IMG/VR virus record: IMGVR_UViG_3300048924_000317
Coordinates: 1-43,932 of that record
Source: a virus
DNA: 43,932 bases
Reading direction: 5' to 3' (one strand)
Below are positions 9,273-42,333 of the stretch, piece after piece (position 1 is the stretch's first letter; the number at the start of each line of letters is the position of its first letter). A program made the position numbers and the translations under genes. Below the pieces are notes generated by a model, which worked only from the letters and a program-made list of their open reading frames with translations, was not told the DNA's origin and did no database searches.

Positions 9273-10649
9273 TTAATCTTTTTCCGTTGGGGGGTCAGCT
9301 AATGGTGCAGTTTTTTCGTTTGTTGGCTCTACTTTGTTAGGTTGTTTCTGTGGGATAGGTGGTTCTGTGTTTGGCGTGTACTCAAAATCTTTTCCTAAAT
9401 CTTTGGATAAGTGACTTTTAAGAACTTCAACCTTTAGCTTTAACTGCTCTTGATAAATTACCTCGTTTGGGAGGTTGAGGTTTTTTGCGGAGGAGTGTGT
9501 GGCCTCTCGTGTTAAGACAAGAAGCTTGGCCAGCGCAAGCCTATCACCGTGAATAGTAAATATTCTTTGAATGATAGAGGTGGTCAGACGCCAACTATAG
9601 TATACGGCAAGTCCAAAAACGGCCGCGAAAGGGATGCGGAGAATAAAAGCTCCAGCAACTTCGCTTAAGGAACTGTGCTCGCTTGCTAAGATTTTGCTAG
9701 CTCCGGCATATAATTCATATACTGAAAAGAGAATAGTTAGAAGTGGTAGTGTTGCAATTAGTATATATATGAGAGCTTGTGATTTACCCTCTTTTACATA
9801 AGGTCCGTATTCGTCAGAGATCAAATTCTTGTCATTTGTTAATTTGCTTAGATTTTTGTTAAGGTCAGAAATTTCTTCATTAAGTTTTTTTGCGGTTTGT
9901 GTTAGTTGAGTCACATTGTTAGATGCGGCAATAGTTTTTTCTGATGTGATGTTGCTCTCGGTCTTTAGTTTATTTAGCTTTTCTTGTTCTTCGGCGTTTT
10001 TTGTTTTTAATGTGGTCGTTTCTTTGTTTAAGTTGTCAATGAGCTCTTGAGCCGCCGATATTTCATTCTGGATGTCGTCGGAGTGTTCTGAGGATTTTGT
10101 TATTTCTTCATTGAGGTCTGCAAGTTCTTTTTTTGTGGTGTTTTTGAATTCTTCAATTTTTGAGCGAAGGTCTATTATTGAGGTGATGTCTTTGGTGTAT
10201 TCATCTAGCTGACTTAAATCGCATCCGAAAATACTAACTTTGCTTATTAAGGGTTTATCCAGAATGACACTACTAGATATCTCGAACCACTCGCAAAAAC
10301 TGCGTGCGTGGCCAAAGCAAAAATTATCCGAAGTTGAGGGCAGGAAAAGCTTTAGTGAAAAGGCTGGTTTGCCAACAGGTTTTATGGTGACTTTTAAATT
10401 CCGAGAGGTTTTTTCCGGAAGGTTAGTATAAAAATAAATACAGTCGAGAAAAAACAAACCGTCAGGAGTAAAACGCTTTACAGAACTTGTTATTTTAACT
10501 GTTTTGTTGGGCGCTGGTGTTTGTGTAAGTAGCACTTGGCACTGTGCTGTTGTCTTCCAAAAAACATTTTGTATGGTGTTAAGACGCGGTATTTGTTGTT
10601 CAAGAATTGCTAAAGTCGCATCTAGTTCTTCCACTGATTCGATACTCAT
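9273..10649 (-). CDS. AT-rich coiled-coil protein with two membrane helices (moron candidate)
   Basis: 458 residues from the ATG at 10649, which has GGAGCAGTA upstream; an ATG at 10715 is an alternative. Residues ~1-160 look like a beta-rich soluble domain. Residues ~165-305 are a long coiled coil (repeated EEI, LNKE, KLN heptads). Two membrane helices follow near 313-335 (ALIYILIATLPLLTILFSVY) and 350-372 (LRIPFAAVFGLAVYYSW), with a charged, proline-rich tail. Base composition is visibly AT-richer than the flanking phage genes, and it lies against the repressor operon, a common moron slot. No family recognised; a role in superinfection exclusion or host defence is inference. Confidence 0.85.
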   Translation of the reverse strand: MSIESVEELDATLAILEQQIPRLNTIQNVFWKTTAQCQVLLTQTPAPNKTVKITSSVKRFTPDGLFFLDCIYFYTNLPEKTSRNLKVTIKPVGKPAFSLKLFLPSTSDNFCFGHARSFCEWFEISSSVILDKPLISKVSIFGCDLSQLDEYTKDITSIIDLRSKIEEFKNTTKKELADLNEEITKSSEHSDDIQNEISAAQELIDNLNKETTTLKTKNAEEQEKLNKLKTESNITSEKTIAASNNVTQLTQTAKKLNEEISDLNKNLSKLTNDKNLISDEYGPYVKEGKSQALIYILIATLPLLTILFSVYELYAGASKILASEHSSLSEVAGAFILRIPFAAVFGLAVYYSWRLTTSIIQRIFTIHGDRLALAKLLVLTREATHSSAKNLNLPNEVIYQEQLKLKVEVLKSHLSKDLGKDFEYTPNTEPPIPQKQPNKVEPTNEKTAPLADPPTEKD

Positions 10650-10817
10650 TACTGCTCCATCGCTGAATTTTTCAGTGACAATATCAGAATGATGGCTTTT
10701 TGAAATCCCCCACAAAAATTTACTTTGCGATCAATCATCCTGTTCGGTTATGTTTTTCGAGTTACGGATCGATCATGATTTATGGTCAAGCAGAAACGGC
10801 AAAAGGCGAAAGGTATC

Positions 10818-22902: not shown

Positions 22903-23805
22903 ATGGATTTGAAAACTGATAAAGGATCATTGGATAGTGATGACTTTTATAAAGTGGTAATTCGAAAAAAGCACAACAGAAAACTAGAAATTAACCTTTG
23001 GTTTATCGCCAGCATTGTAATGGTGGGAGGGGTGGTTTTAGATTTTTTGTTTGGTAGGGATGTCGGCTTTATTTTGAGTGAGCGTTATAGTCAAGTGATA
23101 TTTGCGTTAATGGTTTTGTTGTTTCCGGTATTGTTCGATCTTATTTTTGGCGCCTACCCAATTGAGCATTTGAGACGCGCTCGAGAGTTAACTTTTGCAG
23201 TTGACGATTCAGAGAGGTCTAAATATGATCCGAAAAAAAGAAAGACAGATGTGCCTACTATTTCTGACTCTATTAGTGGCGGAGAATTTTCTAATTTCTC
23301 CGCTCTGGAACTTTTTGCATATTATGCGGCTAGTTCTAGGAGGCTTTCACAGAGCCTTTATAGTCGTTCCGGTGTCTACTTGTTGGTTGGCGTTTTTGTA
23401 GCGTTTACAGGTCTTGTGTTTTTTTATATGGAGACTTCAAGTTCTTCTGGCTATCAGGGTATTGAGCTTGTCATTGCTTTTGCACCAAAGTTTGGTATTT
23501 TGCTTTTTATAGAGCTTGTGGCGTTCTTCTTTCTCAGGCAACACCGATCTTCTATGGATGAGTTTAGATATTACGAAGCTGTGAAGCGTAAGCGAGAGGA
23601 AACAATGGCATTGATCCAGCTTACTTTTGAGAGCGGTAAGGGGAGTGAGGTTTTGGAGCTTGTAAAGAATGGGTCATTTTTCTCTGAAGGTAAACTTTTG
23701 AATAAAGATCAAACTACGGAAATTATTGAGTCGAGAAAGCTTGAGAAAAATGAGCTGGAAATACTTGAAAAGGTATTGGATGTGGTCTCTCGTAGCAAGA
23801 AATGA
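22903..23805 (+). CDS. AT-rich four-helix membrane protein (moron candidate)
   Basis: 300 residues; GGAGTAAGGG precedes the ATG. Predicted membrane helices lie near 30-49 (LWFIASIVMVGGVVLDFLF), 62-84 (VIFALMVLLFPVLFDLIFG), 157-177 (YLLVGVFVAFTGLVFFYME) and 188-209 (VIAFAPKFGILLFIELVAFFFL). A cytosolic stretch of ~70 residues lies between the second and third helices, and the C-terminal ~90 residues are charged and helical. Strongly AT-rich and on the opposite strand between V and S, so it is an insertion into the late region. No family recognised. A TATGAT box at ~22850 could give lysogenic expression. Confidence 0.85.
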   Translation: MDLKTDKGSLDSDDFYKVVIRKKHNRKLEINLWFIASIVMVGGVVLDFLFGRDVGFILSERYSQVIFALMVLLFPVLFDLIFGAYPIEHLRRARELTFAVDDSERSKYDPKKRKTDVPTISDSISGGEFSNFSALELFAYYAASSRRLSQSLYSRSGVYLLVGVFVAFTGLVFFYMETSSSSGYQGIELVIAFAPKFGILLFIELVAFFFLRQHRSSMDEFRYYEAVKRKREETMALIQLTFESGKGSEVLELVKNGSFFSEGKLLNKDQTTEIIESRKLEKNELEILEKVLDVVSRSKK

Positions 23806-32013: not shown

Positions 32014-33065
32014 TGTCGAACCGCCGCAGAAATACCAAGCAAGTGGCCCAGGCTTCCACGGTTGCCACGCAGGAATTTACCCCGCGAAGTGACAGCAAGA
32101 TGGAGGCGTTCAGCTTTGGCGATCCGTCACCGGTGCTGAGTGGCCGGGAGGTGTTTGATTATCTGGAGTGCTGGTTTAACGGGCGGTGGTACGAGCCGCC
32201 GCTGTCGCTGGATGGTCTGGCGCGGTCGGTGGGTTCCAGTGTGCATTTGCATTCGGGGCTGATGTTTAAGCGCAACCTGTTGAGTAAAACTTTTATACCG
32301 CATCCACTGCTGTCGCGAGCGTCGTTTGAACAGTTCACTCTAGATTTCCTATGCCTGGGCAACGGATACCTTGAAGCAAGGCGTTCGATGCTCGGCCCTA
32401 TCCGTGCATTAGTGCCACCGCTTGCGAAGTACATGCGCTCAGGCAGAGACGGTCGACAGTATATGGTCCAAGGCTGGAGGGAAGAGCATGAGTTTGAACC
32501 GGGCACGGTCTTTCACTTAAGGGAAGCGGATTTGCACCAGGAGGTATATGGTCTACCGGAGTGGATCAGCGCATTACAGTCAGCATTGCTAAATGAGTCG
32601 GCAACGTTATTTCGACGCAAGTACTACGAAAACGGAAGCCATGCTGGCTTCATTTTGTATATGACTGATGCTGCGCAAAACGAAGCTGATGTTGACTCTC
32701 TTCGAAAAGCGCTCAAAGACTCCAAAGGACCTGGAAATTTTCGCAATCTGTTCGTGTATTCGCCTAATGGAAAGAAGGATGGACTTCAAATTATCCCGGT
32801 CAGCGAAGTTACGGCCAAGGACGAATTCAACTCGATCAAAAACCAAACCCGCGAGGACGTGCTGGCCAGCTTGCGTATACCGCCGCAGCTGATGGGTATC
32901 GTGCCGCAGAACGCTGGTGGGTTTGGGTCGGTCCGGGAGGCGACGCAGATTTATGCGGCTAATGAACTGGAACCAATTCAGGCGAGAATGATGCAGTTGA
33001 ATGATTGGATTGGTGACGAGGTACTCAGGTTTAAAAAATATGAGCTTCCTGATTCAGGCATCTAG
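32013..33065 (+). CDS. Q: P2 gpQ-like portal protein
   Basis: 350 residues from the ATG at 32013. Family signatures include AFSFGDPSPVLSGREVFDYLECW, FLCLGNGYLEARR, VYGLPEWISALQSALLNESATLFRRKYYENGSHAG and SLRIPPQLMGIVPQN. It forms the dodecameric portal at the head vertex. The stretch from ~32280 to 32830 is visibly less GC-rich than both ends of the gene, which suggests mosaic recombination. The gene ends in a terminator that overlaps the 3' end of the opposite gene by 4 bp. A degraded copy of its 3' region exists at 36448. Confidence 0.95.
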   Translation: MSNRRRNTKQVAQASTVATQEFTPRSDSKMEAFSFGDPSPVLSGREVFDYLECWFNGRWYEPPLSLDGLARSVGSSVHLHSGLMFKRNLLSKTFIPHPLLSRASFEQFTLDFLCLGNGYLEARRSMLGPIRALVPPLAKYMRSGRDGRQYMVQGWREEHEFEPGTVFHLREADLHQEVYGLPEWISALQSALLNESATLFRRKYYENGSHAGFILYMTDAAQNEADVDSLRKALKDSKGPGNFRNLFVYSPNGKKDGLQIIPVSEVTAKDEFNSIKNQTREDVLASLRIPPQLMGIVPQNAGGFGSVREATQIYAANELEPIQARMMQLNDWIGDEVLRFKKYELPDSGI

Positions 33066-34120
33066 GCGCGTAGCGCGTCTCCTTTTTTCTGAAGTCCATC
33101 CGATGCTTTAACAGCTTCTGATTTGAGTGCCTCATGCCACATCCAAAAAACAGAAGTTTGTAAAAGACCTTCATGATCTGGAAACGCGGAAATGAGTGCG
33201 ATGGTGGCATGGCATACAGACAGGCTTGTGCACTGAATTGGTTCTAGTAATCCTTCGTTGGAAGGGCCGGCTAGAAGCAAATCCTTATTCGACATGGATG
33301 TCCCGAGTTTGTACCCTATGCTGTCTACCCCTGCGTGTATGTATTGATTGGCGAAGCTGTAATGGTTTCTAAGAAAACTGAGCCCGACAAACTTCTCAAT
33401 ATCTATAAAGTCTGCTTTCTTTTTTGGGGTGTTGTTTTCTCCCAATGCATTTAAAGCCCATCCTAATTTGTTTGCGAATTTTGGTTCGTACTTTTCTAAT
33501 GTTTCTTTGTGTGCTTGCTTGAATTCCTCTATTTGGCTAGTGGTAAAGCTTTCGAAGCCCAGGTCGTTATTGTCGTTATAACGATTTGCGCCTTCCAATC
33601 TTCGTATGTTCTGATAGTCAATAAACCTTTCAGAGAGGATCTCATCTCCCTCTGATAAAAACTTTAAAATTACTGCCGTCTCGTGCAGTGTCCTCCACCT
33701 AGCCAAAGCACCGTCTGCAAAACCTCCATGTAGTAGGTGGGATACCTCTCTAGCAACTAACATTGCTCGTGCATGTAGTCGGGTAGTGATGTTGAGTTTT
33801 GCTGTTATGTTGGTGGCGTCTCGAGTGTTAAGTGTTCTTATTCGGTCTGTAGTCTCGGTGCACATGTAAATTAACGAGTCTAGTCTTTCTATTGGACTTT
33901 TCCAGGTTTCAAAGAGTCGTCCCATAAAGTTGTTCATGAGCTCGTAATGGTCAGAGAGAAGGTTTTGTTTTTCGTTGTCGAGAATATTGAAAAGGTGCTG
34001 GGCAGAAATTTCATCAATATACTGTGAGTTCTCATTGATGAAACTCAATATTATTGCTTTGTCGATATGTTTTAGCTGGGGTAGATTTAGTAAGTAGTCG
34101 TGCCAGGTGCTGTTGGTCAT
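33062..34120 (-). CDS. DUF5677-like protein (moron candidate)
   Basis: 352 residues from the ATG at 34120; 34156 is an alternative and neither start has a clear ribosome site. The centre, ARWRTLHETAVILKFLSEGDEILSERFIDYQ, matches the helical core of DUF5677-like proteins. Later FLRNHYSFANQYIHAGVDS supplies further conserved His and Tyr. Helical and soluble, no membrane segment. AT-rich and placed tail-to-tail with the portal gene (4-bp overlap), which marks it as an inserted cargo gene. The biochemical role of DUF5677 is unknown to me; defence is possible. Confidence 0.78.
   Translation of the reverse strand: MTNSTWHDYLLNLPQLKHIDKAIILSFINENSQYIDEISAQHLFNILDNEKQNLLSDHYELMNNFMGRLFETWKSPIERLDSLIYMCTETTDRIRTLNTRDATNITAKLNITTRLHARAMLVAREVSHLLHGGFADGALARWRTLHETAVILKFLSEGDEILSERFIDYQNIRRLEGANRYNDNNDLGFESFTTSQIEEFKQAHKETLEKYEPKFANKLGWALNALGENNTPKKKADFIDIEKFVGLSFLRNHYSFANQYIHAGVDSIGYKLGTSMSNKDLLLAGPSNEGLLEPIQCTSLSVCHATIALISAFPDHEGLLQTSVFWMWHEALKSEAVKASDGLQKKGDALRA
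33065..33088 (+). terminator. Terminator of the P-Q operon
   Basis: GGCGCG-TAG-CGCGTC stem (one G-T pair) from 33065 to 33079, followed by TCC and six T. It overlaps the 3' coding end of the opposite-strand gene. Confidence 0.7.
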
Positions 34121-34193
34121 TGTTTGTTCTTCGTGGTTGATTGCTTGTTCATGCATTTTTTATTTCTAGTTTCAGAAAGTGCCTCTTGTACTG

Positions 34194-36230: not shown

Positions 36231-36253
36231 TTCGAATCTCTCCTTCACCGCCA
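36231..36253 (+). other. attR: Right attachment site: 3' end of a tRNA-Ser gene
   Basis: TTCGAATCTCTCCTTCACCG plus CCA is the T-loop, T-stem, acceptor strand, G73 discriminator and CCA of a serine tRNA. The 5' part of a tRNA is absent, and the T-stem does not pair with the bases to the left (GTACT against CTCTC). So this is the displaced 3' copy at the prophage edge. The intact tRNA should lie upstream of int, before the window. Confidence 0.8.
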
Positions 36254-36660: not shown

Positions 36661-37488
36661 TCATCTCCCTAGGATTTTTTTCTTAACAAGGGGTTCTAAA
36701 GTGGTTATTTCAGCCGATTTGATAACATTTCCCAAATGCATCATTGCTGCAACTTGTACTGTTGGCGTTTGACCTAAAACTATGGCTCCAGTGTTTGTAA
36801 TTAATGGGCCTGCGTATAGAATGCCTACTAGTTTGATTCGAGTGGCTCCCATCATGTAGTTATTTGTTTTTCGATCTAAATATCCGTTACGGTCAAAAAC
36901 GAATACTGGTGAACCCGAAGATCCTGGAAAGCAAGCCATATCCACCATGAACTCTCTCTTGCCGTTATAGTTTTTAGCGAGAGATGATGCCGTAATACCT
37001 TTGCGCGATATCGGTAGATTATTTATTTCATCTGAAATTCCATTCGGACACCCAATCATAGTGACTTCTTCTATGGCGTCAAAGTCGTTCCACTCATCAT
37101 TTTTAGGTATTAATGATGGATCTAAAGGAACAATGAATAGAGGTGTTTGAAGGGCAATTGCATTATTTACAATGTCGCCAAATAATATTGCGCAGAGATC
37201 AATGTTGGGGTCAGGGTGTCGAATAATCCTGTTTTCTTGGAGATCCATAGCAAGGGTAATGTGTCTTCCTGAGGGCCCATTGCCCTCTGCTAAGTGATAT
37301 GTGACGTTGATGGCTTCATTGCCGTTTATGACATGATTGTTAGTGATAATTGCTATTGCGTCCCGTTCCTTGTCAATGGAAAATTTAAAAAAAAAGCCAG
37401 TTCCTGTACTTGCTGCCTTGCCGCCTTTTAAAGCAGTCAGCTTAGCTGTTGAATACAGCATTTGCTCCGCTACTGTTAGTGCTGTCAC
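36661..37488 (-). CDS. Trypsin-like serine protease, cytosolic
   Basis: 275 residues. The triad is readable as His52 in TNNHVI, an Asp in PNIDLCAI (~96) and Ser in FPGSSGSPVF (~194). GTGFFFKF at the start and MIGCPNG before the serine are typical of the trypsin-like (S1/HtrA-type) fold. No signal peptide or PDZ domain, so it probably acts in the cytosol. AT-rich, with no obvious partner gene. Trypsin-like peptidases occur in several prophage and defence-island systems as effector domains. Whether this one is single-gene is unknown. Confidence 0.85.
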   Translation of the reverse strand: MTALTVAEQMLYSTAKLTALKGGKAASTGTGFFFKFSIDKERDAIAIITNNHVINGNEAINVTYHLAEGNGPSGRHITLAMDLQENRIIRHPDPNIDLCAILFGDIVNNAIALQTPLFIVPLDPSLIPKNDEWNDFDAIEEVTMIGCPNGISDEINNLPISRKGITASSLAKNYNGKREFMVDMACFPGSSGSPVFVFDRNGYLDRKTNNYMMGATRIKLVGILYAGPLITNTGAIVLGQTPTVQVAAMMHLGNVIKSAEITTLEPLVKKKILGR

Positions 37489-38373: not shown

Positions 38374-39672
38374 ATGGAAAAGCTGATAATTGAAGATTTT
38401 CTATCTATAAAAAAGGCTGAAGTTAATCTAAAAAGAATTAATATATTTATTGGTCCACAGGCTAAAGGGAAGAGTTTAATATCTAAGCTGATTAGCTATT
38501 TTAAAGAGGTTCCTGTAGCGCTGCAGGAGGCCGGCATCGATGAGAAGTCTAAGCGTCAGTTTGATGCTGACTTGAGAGCTAAGTTTGAAAGTATTTTTCC
38601 GAGATATGGTTGGGAGAAGTCAACTTTTAATATATCGTATACGTGCGGTAGTTACAGTATTTCGATTTCTCATGGGAAAGTAAATTCCCAGTATAAGTGG
38701 TGTGTAAAGTATTCTGAAAGTGTACTAAAGTCCTTGTCTTTGGCTAGAAAAATTTATAAAAAAGCAATGTCCTCAGAGGATGGGGATGGGAAGTATCTTT
38801 ACAAGATTAGGTCTAACGCTATTAGAGAGTTGCGAGATGCGATCGTTTCTTCGCTATATGCGGATGCGCCAGATAAAAAGCTAGAGCAGGTATTTTATAT
38901 TCCTGCGGGAAGGTCTTTTTTTGCAAATTTGCAAAAAAACGTATTTTCGTTTATATCTTCTAGTATACCGATAGATCATTTTTTAAAAGAGTTTGGTGCA
39001 ATATACGAAAGAACTCGAGAACGAGGTTTTTTAGAGTTTTCCATATCTAAGCGGCCTAAAAGTGTAGAGAAGATTGTCAACGATTTGATTTGTGGTAGCT
39101 ATCTTTCTGAGAAAGGGCAGGATTGGATTGTTAGTCCGCAAGGTAGGGTTAATCTTTCAAACTCAAGTTCTGGCCAGCAGGAGGTTCTACCTATGGCCAT
39201 GGTTCTGTCGACTTGGCCTTATGCTGTAGGGCCTAGCTTTACAAGAAGTTTTATAGTTGAAGAGCCCGAGGCGCACTTGTTTCCTATTGCGCAGGGGCAA
39301 ATAGTTTCATTAATTGCCTCTGCATATAATGCTCGCGATGGTTTGGGTAGTTACACCATTACTACTCATAGTCCATACATTTTGACGGCTTTTAATAATC
39401 TTATTCAGGCTGGTAATGTTTTAGCGAAATCAAGCGAGAAAGAACAGTTTGACAAGTTGTTTAGCGTTGTTCCGCCTGAGCAGGTGGTTAGGTTTCAGGA
39501 TGTCACTGCCTATTTTGTTGATAAGGGAGTTGTGAAAGAAATAATGGACCACGGAATGAGGTTGATAGACGCAAGTGCGATAGATAATGTCTCCGAACAT
39601 TTTGCACAGCGCTTTGAGACGTTGATTGATCTTGAAATGGAGTTGGAGCAGCATTCGGAGGGGGCTGAGTAA
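38374..39672 (+). CDS. AAA/ABC-type ATPase of a putative defence pair
   Basis: 432 residues. It begins MEKLIIEDFLSIKKAEVNL, the usual opening of AAA_15/OLD-like ATPases. Walker A is GPQAKGKS (27-34). A signature loop NSSSGQQEVLPM lies near 262-273, Walker B FIVEEPEAHLFP near 293-304 and the H-switch TTHSPY near 330-335. The ~240-residue insert between Walker A and signature is helical. There is no Toprim domain at the C-terminus, so it is not a complete OLD nuclease. Its TAA overlaps the ATG of the next gene, so the two are co-translated. AT-rich, typical of transferred defence genes. Confidence 0.88.
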   Translation: MEKLIIEDFLSIKKAEVNLKRINIFIGPQAKGKSLISKLISYFKEVPVALQEAGIDEKSKRQFDADLRAKFESIFPRYGWEKSTFNISYTCGSYSISISHGKVNSQYKWCVKYSESVLKSLSLARKIYKKAMSSEDGDGKYLYKIRSNAIRELRDAIVSSLYADAPDKKLEQVFYIPAGRSFFANLQKNVFSFISSSIPIDHFLKEFGAIYERTRERGFLEFSISKRPKSVEKIVNDLICGSYLSEKGQDWIVSPQGRVNLSNSSSGQQEVLPMAMVLSTWPYAVGPSFTRSFIVEEPEAHLFPIAQGQIVSLIASAYNARDGLGSYTITTHSPYILTAFNNLIQAGNVLAKSSEKEQFDKLFSVVPPEQVVRFQDVTAYFVDKGVVKEIMDHGMRLIDASAIDNVSEHFAQRFETLIDLEMELEQHSEGAE

Positions 39673-40094
39673 TGACTGCGCACTGCATTGTCCCAACAAA
39701 AAATCCAATTTTAACATTTGAAGAACAAAAGTCGGTTTTTCAAGTTTTAAATAAAGGGCGCAGAAATCTTGAGCGGCATCAGGTAGATGGGTGTTTGATA
39801 GTTGATGGTATTAAATGTGATTGGTTGCTGGTTGATACTGATAGTGGTAGGGAGATATATATAGAGCTAAAAGGGTCTGATATTAAACATGCGGTGGATC
39901 AGATTTGTGAAACTATAGGTGCTCTTACTAAGAGTGCAAAAGATGTAAAGTTGGGTTACGTTATTTGCACTAAGTGTCCTCTGGATTCTACTGCGGTCCA
40001 GCGATTAAAAAAAGCCGTACTGCTTAGTCATAAGTTAAGGTTGAGAGTCCAAAAGACAATTCATCGTGAGGATATTGAGGCAATGATCGCTTGA
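39672..40094 (+). CDS. Small PD-(D/E)XK-like nuclease paired with the ATPase
   Basis: 140 residues starting MTAHCIVPTKNPILTFEEQ. Asp50 (KCDWLLVD), then Glu65-x-Lys67 (YIELKG) and a following helix with Gln78 (AVDQICETIG) reproduce the PD-(D/E)XK nuclease core. This call is from the motif pattern only. It begins within the ATPase stop codon (TAATG), so the products are probably made together and may form a complex in which ATP state gates DNA or RNA cleavage. It differs from the HNH partner of Septu and from the Toprim partner of PARIS. Confidence 0.75.
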   Translation: MTAHCIVPTKNPILTFEEQKSVFQVLNKGRRNLERHQVDGCLIVDGIKCDWLLVDTDSGREIYIELKGSDIKHAVDQICETIGALTKSAKDVKLGYVICTKCPLDSTAVQRLKKAVLLSHKLRLRVQKTIHREDIEAMIA

Positions 40095-40385: not shown

Positions 40386-40589
40386 CTAGCGCATCGTAGC
40401 TACTTGGTCATCGATGGCGAATTTGCCTTGATCGGCTTCTTTTACTGCCAGTTCGATCTGATCGGTCAGCGTTTTTTCGTGCTCAAAATAGTCGCGAAGA
40501 ATGTCCACTGCCTGGTGGGTCGCAGTCTGGTTTTCGGTTTTGAGCAGATCAGTGAGAGAGTCGGGCAGGTTTAAGGATATTCCAGTCAT
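40386..40589 (-). CDS. Orphan ribbon-helix-helix antitoxin-like protein
   Basis: 67 residues: MTGISLNLPDSLTDLLKTENQ looks like the strand and first helix of a short RHH domain. The C-terminus LAVKEADQGKFAIDDQVATMR resembles the toxin-binding tail of ParD/CopG-type antitoxins (EADxGxFA-D-EV). No toxin frame is present on either side, and the repeat copy B follows 57 bp downstream, so the toxin has probably been lost. It may still act as a DNA-binding antitoxin for another locus. Confidence 0.65.
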   Translation of the reverse strand: MTGISLNLPDSLTDLLKTENQTATHQAVDILRDYFEHEKTLTDQIELAVKEADQGKFAIDDQVATMR

Positions 40590-40926: not shown

Positions 40927-41715
40927 ATGGATGTGCCTAAGATAGAGATTAAGTTGGACGCGACTAAAGTTGTTGAAGATGTATATGAGGATGGAGTGGC
41001 CGACGTATTAAAAGAGGTATCTACTATTGGCGTAGATGCCGTAAAAACGTTGAAGTTGGCGTTGTTTCCTCTTCAGTTGGGTGCTTTTTTTCAAGATAGA
41101 TTGACACGTTATTTTTCAGAGGCATTGCACAGGATTCCTTTGGAGCATCGAGTTGCTCCTATCGAATCAACAGTGCTCCAAATATCAGAAAAGCTGAGGG
41201 TGCAGGAAGAGGGAGGTATAATTACTGAGATGTACGTTGCACTGCTTGAATGTGCATTTGATAAGCGGCGTTTTGGCCAGGCTCATCCTTCGTTTGTGAA
41301 TATTGTTACGCAGCTTAGTGCTGATGAAGCAGTTTTGCTTGATCATATTTCTACTGCAAATGCCAAAATATACTTTGGGAGAGAGCCAATAGATTGGGCG
41401 CAGACGTCGAGCTCTATTGAGAGGCATTTTTCGGAAGTAATGTTTAAGTCCGTGAAATTGGATTGGCAGTTTTTTATAAATCCGGACGTCCTTGCTGAGC
41501 CTTCTTATTTGCAAATTTATATTGAGCACCTGGTATCAATGGGGCTTGTTAGTTATGACAACGATCGACCAACTGAATTGGCGCAGGCGTTTGAATCTAT
41601 CAATGGTCAATTGCAACCTGCGTGGGCAATACGGCTCTCGAGATTTGGGAAATTATTCCACCAGGCATGCACAGGAGAGGCGATCTTACGAGCAACTGCT
41701 TCAGATAGATTGTGA
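40927..41715 (+). CDS. DUF4393/Abi-alpha-like protein
   Basis: 262 residues. The opening VEDVYEDGVADVLKEVSTIG and GAFFQDRLTRYFSEALHRIP, then MYVALLECAFDKRRFGQAHPSFVNIVTQLSADEAVLL, follow the DUF4393 pattern (P-x-M-F--LL--S-D----AHPSF--I--QL--DEA). Members have been linked to abortive infection (Abi-alpha), though the mechanism is not known to me. No membrane helix beyond one weakly hydrophobic segment. AT-rich, single gene, with a probable own promoter. Sits between repeat copies B and C. Confidence 0.75.
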   Translation: MDVPKIEIKLDATKVVEDVYEDGVADVLKEVSTIGVDAVKTLKLALFPLQLGAFFQDRLTRYFSEALHRIPLEHRVAPIESTVLQISEKLRVQEEGGIITEMYVALLECAFDKRRFGQAHPSFVNIVTQLSADEAVLLDHISTANAKIYFGREPIDWAQTSSSIERHFSEVMFKSVKLDWQFFINPDVLAEPSYLQIYIEHLVSMGLVSYDNDRPTELAQAFESINGQLQPAWAIRLSRFGKLFHQACTGEAILRATASDRL

Positions 41716-42120
41716 GCATAAGGTAAAGCAAGCTAGGAGAAGAGTAGTACTGGGTATGTGTCGACCATTTCGGTAAGTCTCACTCTCATCCACTTCAAAA
41801 ATTTCCTCGCTCAAGCCAGCAGATGAATGCTCATCTGTGCCAATGAGGTGCAAGAGTTACCGCAAATCGCTGTGAATCGCGATGAGGCATATTACGGCGA
41901 TGGATGCTTAAAGTTTGCTACAAGGACAGCGCTGAGGTGCTTTGCGAGTAACATCTCTGGGAGCAAAGCGGACCTCTATGTCCAATCCATCATCGAGACG
42001 ACTAACACAGCATGGAGTGATCTCGGCACCGGGCTACAATCCATGGGAAACTTCCCACACTTTTCTCAGCTTGCCCCTCAGACTTCCCCTAGCTAACCTC
42101 CCCAAACCGCTGGAAACCCA
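41716..42120. other. Gene-free stretch with repeat copy C
   Basis: Open frames here (for example 41827-42096) show no coding character. Copy C (41981-42002) begins TCCAATCCATCATCGAGACG and shares its first 15 bases with copy A. It probably marks the edge between accessory and ordinary chromosome. Confidence 0.5.
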
Positions 42121-42333
42121 GCGGCCGGATGTGGAAGTCCGTACCAAGCTAAGACGCAATCGTCACAAACACCTACCGGCGTTTTTTTACGCCTGTATCA
42201 TGTGTTTCGGCGGCTGTGCGCGGGGCACTTCGGTGCGCCGGGTCCTTAGCCCTGGTCTTCCACACCTGCGTACGGCTGCCACCCTCATGTGGAAGTGAGT
42301 TTGGCAGTTCCTGAACAGTTAAGGAGCTTCGCC
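42121..42333 (+). ncRNA. Structured 5' leader of the DUF6124-like gene
   Basis: Contains a hairpin with a cUUCGg tetraloop (GCAC-TTCG-GTGC, 42225-42236, extended by CGG/CCG). Three complementary segments can switch partners: TGTGGAAG (42130-42137), CTTCCACA (42257-42264) and TGTGGAAG (42288-42295). AAGGAG for the gene lies at ~42321. The mutually exclusive pairings look like a regulatory leader. I believe similar leaders precede paralogues in other Pseudomonas genomes, but that is from memory. Confidence 0.5.

What the first reader, a model, noticed from the sequence alone, without database searches (positions are those of the whole stretch)
38374..40094. Translationally coupled ATPase plus PD-(D/E)XK-like nuclease: candidate defence pair
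An AAA/ABC-like ATPase with intact Walker A, signature, Walker B and H-switch is fused by TAATG overlap to a 140-residue protein with D50...E65-x-K67 and Q78. The pair is AT-rich, lies downstream of a tRNA integration site and sits among other defence-like genes. The composition differs from Septu (HNH), PARIS (Toprim), Gabija (OLD with UvrD) and stand-alone OLD. I cannot match it to a named system.
Basis: partly seen in the sequence, partly recalled or inferred. Interest (0 to 1): 0.78.

Follow-up and report, generated by a model that had tools for sequence, protein, structure and literature searches.

The report
WonAB-type phage-defence gene pair in Pseudomonas
Two overlapping genes in a Pseudomonas genomic island encode an ATPase and a small nuclease that very probably form a WonAB anti-phage suicide system, a kind first described in cholera bacteria in 2025, so the pair is real and interesting but not a new type.

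Summary
Window 38374-39672 encodes a 432-aa OLD/Septu-like ABC ATPase and 39672-40094 a 140-aa protein, overlapping by one base (TAATG). Of 80 relatives of the small protein in diverse phyla, 75 have the ATPase directly upstream; the other five are cut short. AlphaFold2 gives the small protein a confident (pLDDT 90) PD-(D/E)XK topology, with D50, E65 and K67 at adjoining strands and Q77 on the next helix. The pair is not unclassified. It corresponds to WonAB (V. cholerae WASA-1 prophage, PMC12137116), an abortive-infection system in which WonA licenses WonB, a nuclease that shuts down translation. The residues shown there to be essential (WonA K34, R182, E300, H333; WonB K71) have counterparts K33, R180, E297, H332 and K67. 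At 18 positions encoded by the paper's qPCR primers, the window pair scores highest (14/18) of 61 family members. PADLOC already lists the family as the unnamed candidate PDC-M29. The most likely mechanism is infection-triggered, ATPase-gated RNA cleavage that stops translation; target and trigger are unknown and nothing was tested experimentally for this copy. It is a new member of a known kind and of modest interest.

The parts
38374..39672 (+). WonA-like ABC ATPase (432 aa), OLD/PtuA/AriA-type head with C-terminal helical extension (about residues 401-431)
   Evidence: Pfam AAA_15 E 2.3e-15; PADLOC PDC-M29A E 1.9e-32; AF2 pLDDT 90.3, pTM 0.90; Foldseek PtuA E 7e-11; VIA-align Z 17.7 to retron/Septu PtuA and 15.8 to AriA
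39672..40094 (+). WonB-like PD-(D/E)XK nuclease (140 aa); active site D50, E65-x-K67, Q77; conserved D39, C49, D70
   Evidence: Alignment A4, conservation, AF2 pLDDT 89.8, pTM 0.86, VIA-align best rows Can2, Cdn1, EcoT38I, EndoMS, PspGI, PADLOC PDC-M29B E 2.6e-4
39670..39674 (+). TAATG stop/start overlap that couples the two genes
   Evidence: sequence
38452..38475 (+). Walker A GPQAKGKS (K33); the wonA-F primer of PMC12137116 encodes PQANGK here
39253..39270 (+). Walker B IVEEPE (E296, E297)
39361..39378 (+). H-switch TTHSPY (H332)
39813..39881 (+). nuclease core KCDWLLVD ... IELKGSD (residues 48-70)

Best explanation
The pair is a Pseudomonas WonAB system: a two-gene abortive-infection defence. 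The ATPase (WonA) probably dimerises around two ATPs in the OLD/Septu manner and holds or licenses the small PD-(D/E)XK nuclease (WonB) through its C-terminal extension. When a phage infection is sensed (trigger unknown), ATP-dependent action of WonA lets WonB cut its target, most likely a tRNA or rRNA, so that translation stops and the phage cannot complete its cycle; the cell is sacrificed. Shown here: gene layout, motifs, folds (predicted), conserved pairing, and residue-level correspondence with WonAB. Shown in the paper for the V. cholerae homologue: both genes and the ATPase and nuclease residues are needed, WonB toxicity depends on WonA, genomic DNA stays intact, translation stops. Inferred: that the Pseudomonas copy works the same way, and that the substrate is RNA.
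For: Pairing: 75 of 80 relatives have the ATPase directly upstream, the rest are truncated loci. Correspondence with WonAB (PMC12137116): WonA K34/R182/E300/H333 and WonB K71 = window K33/R180/E297/H332 and K67, near-invariant or invariant in the family. The published qPCR primers translate to PQANGK, PRYSWE and CDWILS; the window has PQAKGK, PRYGWE and CDWLLV and scores highest of 61 family members at these 18 positions (14/18). WonB is given as 16.1 kDa, close to what 140 residues would weigh. AF2 models: PD-(D/E)XK order of strands and helices in the small protein, best rows Can2/Cdn1/restriction enzymes; ATPase like PtuA, AriA, Rad50. PADLOC PDC-M29A/B match the family. Defence-type neighbours on both sides.
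Against: I could not obtain the full WonA and WonB sequences (the primer has no match in viral contigs), so no whole-length identity to WonAB was measured; the comparison rests on 18 residues plus published residue numbers. One of the four primers (wonB-F, TTVSKD) falls in a poorly conserved N-terminal stretch and agrees only loosely. The nuclease fold matches are middling (Z 6.8, rmsd 3.5 over 122 residues; Foldseek E no better than 0.11), so the fold assignment rests on topology and conserved residues together. Nothing has been tested for this copy, and the RNA target is unproven even for V. cholerae WonAB.
Confidence: 0.87

Rival explanations
1. It is a member of the wider 'OLD-ABC ATPase + novel REase' group (of which WonAB is one branch) but outside WonAB proper, and its nuclease cuts DNA (phage or chromosome), like Gabija or restriction enzymes, rather than RNA.
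For: The wider group is real and diverse; best fold rows for the nuclease are mostly DNA-cutting PD-(D/E)XK enzymes such as Can2, EcoT38I, EndoMS; the substrate of WonB itself is not proven.
Against: At the positions known for WonAB the window pair is the closest of all 61 family members; V. cholerae WonB activation leaves genomic DNA intact and stops translation.
Confidence: 0.08
2. It is a PD-T4-4 system, or another named ATPase+nuclease pair (Septu, PARIS, Gabija, retron effector).
For: The ATPase matches PD-T4-4_A, AriA, GajA and PtuA profiles at lower scores and shares the PtuA/AriA fold; PD-T4-4 is also an ATPase + PD-(D/E)XK pair (PMC10952713).
Against: The best profile is PDC-M29A, and none of 79 family nucleases matches PD-T4-4_B, AriB, PtuB or GajB at E <= 1e-3. 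No HNH, Toprim, helicase or reverse transcriptase hit among the neighbouring genes tested.
Confidence: 0.03
3. A conserved pair that is not for defence (for example a DNA-repair or regulatory ATPase-nuclease couple), or a decaying copy without function here.
For: Neighbouring genes of relatives gave only a few matches to known defence families (methyltransferases, mads; 100 proteins, no control); one relative sits in a Bacteroides glycosyltransferase cluster.
Against: Sparse distribution (2 strong and 3 weaker hits in 298 Pseudomonas genomes) suits accessory defence genes, not housekeeping; all catalytic residues are intact in the window; a homologue is proven defensive (PMC12137116).
Confidence: 0.02

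Closest known systems
WonAB (V. cholerae WASA-1 prophage; PMC12137116)
   Same: Two-gene operon, OLD-type ABC ATPase then small PD-(D/E)xK protein; same catalytic residues at nearly the same positions; primer-encoded peptides nearly identical; carried next to or in a prophage
   Different: Pseudomonas host; next to a P2-like prophage rather than within WASA-1; no adjoining transcription regulator recognised; activity untested; full-length identity not measured
PADLOC candidate PDC-M29 (A and B)
   Same: Best profile for the ATPase (E 1.9e-32) and only profile for the nuclease; 52 of 79 family nucleases match PDC-M29B
   Different: A computational candidate for which I found no tested function or name; its profiles fit Bacteroidota members better (178.7 and 190.7 bits for L002 and L019 ATPases against 111 for the window)
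OLD-ABC ATPase + novel REase (in-silico group, cited in PMC12137116)
   Same: Same domain pair; the paper says it encompasses all WonAB hits
   Different: Wider group (0.96% against 0.43% of genomes in that paper), exemplar from Anaerovibrio
PD-T4-4 (E. coli)
   Same: ATPase + PD-(D/E)XK pair; ATPase profile match E 6e-13
   Different: Nuclease does not match PD-T4-4_B; paper reports different inserts and C-terminal extension
Septu / retron PtuA and PARIS AriA
   Same: ATPase fold (Z 17.7 and 15.8)
   Different: Partner is HNH (PtuB) or Toprim (AriB), not PD-(D/E)XK

Membership tests
WonAB | Adjacent ABC ATPase and small nuclease genes, ATPase first | tested here: met
WonAB | WonA catalytic residues K34, R182, E300, H333 | tested here: met
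   K33, R180, E297, H332 in the window; conserved across 61 relatives; residue numbers from PMC12137116
WonAB | WonB nuclease lysine K71 in a PD-(D/E)xK site | tested here: met
   K67 in E65-x-K67 with D50 and Q77
WonAB | Sequence similarity specific to WonAB rather than to the wider group | tested here: inconclusive
   Highest of 61 at 18 primer-encoded positions, 14/18; full WonAB sequences not available
WonAB | C-terminal helical extension of WonA that binds WonB | tested here: inconclusive
   AF2 gives a long C-terminal helix 401-431; complex not modelled
WonAB | Abortive infection with translation shut-down and WonA-dependent WonB toxicity | not testable with these tools
   needs experiments
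PD-(D/E)XK nuclease fold | Central sheet with D and E-x-K on adjoining strands followed by a helix | tested here: met
   E51-55, E61-66, H71-85, E93-99, H107-120, E122-128 at pLDDT about 90; top VIA-align rows are mostly PD-(D/E)XK enzymes but at Z 5-7 only
PD-T4-4 | Nuclease related to PD-T4-4_B | tested here: not met
   No match in 79 relatives at E <= 1e-3, nor for the window protein at E <= 1
Septu | HNH partner PtuB | tested here: not met
   No HNH/PtuB match for the partner
PARIS | Toprim partner AriB | tested here: not met
   No Toprim/AriB match for the partner
Gabija / stand-alone OLD | C-terminal Toprim domain in the ATPase protein, UvrD-like partner in Gabija | tested here: not met
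   432-aa ATPase ends in a helix, no Toprim match; partner is not a helicase

The most novel reading that the evidence does not exclude
This Pseudomonas branch uses the WonAB architecture with a different substrate or control step from V. cholerae WonAB, for example with the strongly conserved cysteines of the nuclease family (C49 in 81/81, C5 in 69/81, C41 in 59/81) forming a metal or redox site that gates the enzyme, which the parts of the WonAB paper read here do not mention.
Probability: 0.12. Interest if true: 0.5.

Novelty: new member of a known kind. Interest (0 to 1): 0.3.

Why it matters
It links PADLOC's unnamed candidate PDC-M29 to an experimentally proven system (WonAB), shows by conserved gene order that the pair occurs in Pseudomonadota, Cyanobacteria, Bacteroidota, Bacillota, Planctomycetota, Verrucomicrobiota and Nitrospirota, and gives an 80-member alignment that points to untested conserved residues (D39, C49, D70). 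A Pseudomonas version that can be moved into a laboratory strain would be convenient for finding the RNA target of WonB, which is still open.

Tried and rejected
Single-sequence scans of genome contigs and viral contigs with the small protein found nothing, nor did the ATPase in viral contigs; a five-sequence profile then found 176 relatives in genome contigs (80 kept) and none in viral contigs. A primer of PMC12137116 was searched in viral contigs to fetch WonAB itself: no match. No PDB chain matches either protein by sequence. I then sent only plain translations, so the complex was not modelled. Nuclease-only rows misaligned against the fused rows. Neighbours of relatives gave only a few defence-family hits in 100 proteins, with no control, so I do not use this as evidence. 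I first took the C4 antisense RNA at 42203-42286 as a sign of a P4-like satellite; it occurs in many copies in most Pseudomonas genomes, so that reading was dropped.

Full report
WHAT IS THERE. Window 38374-39672 (+) encodes 432 aa and 39672-40094 (+) encodes 140 aa; the stop of the first and the start of the second share one base, TAATG. The region has about 41% GC, against about 60% in most of the rest of the window. The first protein has every motif of an OLD/Septu-type ABC ATPase: GPQAKGKS, IPAGRS, SSGQQE, IVEEPE, TTHSPY.

IT IS A CONSERVED PAIR. A profile from five first sequences found 176 further relatives of the small protein in GTDB genomes, 80 of which were fetched. In 75 of 80 the upstream gene is the ATPase; the five exceptions are loci with at most about 300 bases before the small gene. 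The genomes span Pseudomonas, Cyanobacteria, Bacteroidota, Bacillota, Planctomycetota, Verrucomicrobiota, Nitrospirota and others. Start codons in that script were chosen by a rule that favours short distances, so exact overlaps are approximate. In the small protein D39, C49, D50, E65, L66, K67, G68 and D70 are invariant or nearly so in 79-81 sequences, A74 and Q77 nearly so. ELKGxD was part of the search pattern, so its invariance is partly forced; that of D39, C49-D50 and Q77 was not.

FOLDS. AlphaFold2 with 79 sequences gives the small protein mean pLDDT 89.8 and pTM 0.86. Foldseek finds nothing significant (best E 0.11, MunI). VIA-align ranks Can2, VC1899, Cdn1, EcoT38I, FokI, EndoMS and PspGI near the top, at Z 5.5-6.8 (Can2: Z 6.8, rmsd 3.5, 122 aligned); unrelated rows such as acetyl-CoA carboxylase reach 5.7, so this alone would not prove the fold. 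The ATPase model (pLDDT 90.3, pTM 0.90) matches PtuA of Septu and retrons (Foldseek E 7e-11; Z 17.7, rmsd 4.4, 295 aligned) and AriA of PARIS (Z 15.8, rmsd 4.7, 262 aligned). It ends in a long helix, 401-431.

WHICH SYSTEM. PADLOC gives PDC-M29A (E 1.9e-32) for the ATPase and PDC-M29B (E 2.6e-4) for the nuclease; 52 of 79 relatives match PDC-M29B and none matches the nuclease of a named system at E <= 1e-3. No paper in the library names PDC-M29. Reading about PD-T4-4 led to WonAB: a two-gene operon of the V. cholerae WASA-1 prophage, ABC ATPase plus PD-(D/E)xK protein, both needed against phage ICP1 and active in E. coli against Vequintavirinae. K34A, R182A, E300A, H333A in WonA and K71A in WonB abolish protection. 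In the window these are K33, R180, E297, H332 and K67. E300 is matched to E297, the second Glu of EEPE: in the Pseudomonas relative L090 this residue lies 33 before the His, as in WonA; in the window it lies 35 before (counted by hand). I did not find WonAB itself in the collection I could still scan. As a substitute I translated the paper's qPCR primers: wonA-F gives PQANGK, where the lysine should be K34; wonA-R gives PRYSWE; wonB-R gives CDWILS. The window has PQAKGK, PRYGWE and CDWLLV. Of 61 family members compared at these 18 positions the window scores highest, 14, followed by Pseudomonas KNUC1026 and Pseudanabaena at 13 and other cyanobacteria at 11-12, while most others score 5-10. So the window pair belongs to the WonAB branch as far as the available residues can show.

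HOW IT PROBABLY WORKS. From PMC12137116: excess WonB is toxic only if active WonA is present, DNA stays intact, translation stops, the authors suggest rRNA or tRNA as target, WonB is degraded by Lon, and the modelled WonB sits on the dimerised C-terminal extensions of WonA. I infer the same for the Pseudomonas pair. The trigger is unknown. Frequency: 5 of 298 Pseudomonas genomes match, two of them strongly; in the class 4 of 369, three only marginally. The paper reports 0.43% of bacterial genomes for WonAB.

SURROUNDINGS. About 4-33 kb is a P2-like prophage (terminase, portal, GPL, GPD, sheath, tape measure). The pair lies beyond it, past a 23-base tRNA-Ser-like 3' end (36231-36253), between a trypsin-like PDC-S45 gene and an Abi_alpha/PDC-S47 gene; an MFS transporter, probably chromosomal, follows at the right edge. 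That the host is a Pseudomonas is inferred from the closest relative (L006) and the genes around, not given by the record. Whether the pair is cargo of the prophage or of a separate island cannot be told from this record, which is a virus contig with no host genome held.

VERDICT. Observation confirmed; defence reading supported by homology; novelty not supported. It is a new member of the WonAB kind. Interest 0.3.

Noticed in passing
window 36661-37488 (-): Trypsin-like protease gene that matches PADLOC's unnamed candidate PDC-S45 over its whole length (E 2.7e-101); a defence candidate in its own right.
   Followed up: no
window 40927-41715 (+): Abi_alpha (PF14337, E 1.2e-26) gene, also PADLOC PDC-S47, just downstream of the pair.
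   Followed up: no
window 33062-34156 (-): DUF5677 protein right beside the P2-like portal gene, AT-rich; possible prophage cargo.
   Followed up: no
window 42093-42286 (+): C4 antisense RNA (RF01695, 54 bits) preceded by a c4-a1b1 target match (RF03163, below its cut-off). The same search finds C4 in 73 of 79 Pseudomonas genomes, up to 47 matches per genome where only 47 candidates are scored, so it looks like a dispersed multicopy RNA element in this genus rather than a phage immunity locus; the DUF6124 gene beside it is not seen near six other copies.
   Followed up: partly
window 36231-36253 (+): tRNA-Ser-like 3' end (TTCGAATCTCTCCTTCACCGCCA) without the rest of a tRNA, single copy in the window: possible attachment-site remnant.
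   Followed up: partly
window 9273-10715 (-) and 22903-23805 (+): AT-rich islands (41-43% GC) inside the prophage; the first, 480 aa, has no PHROG match and no significant Pfam match, the second only phrog_5157 of unknown function: possible cargo genes.
   Followed up: no
window 40386-40589 (-): 67-aa protein that reads like a lone antitoxin, with no significant Pfam match and no toxin partner seen.
   Followed up: no
L002 2204-3908: A WonAB-like pair lies inside a glycosyltransferase cluster on a Bacteroides finegoldii plasmid, an unusual place for a defence system.
   Followed up: no
L091, L092, L093: Three Pseudomonas genomes hold a longer, more distant relative of the nuclease (open frames of 172-179 aa, E 1e-9 to 1e-11), possibly another branch of the group.
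   Followed up: no
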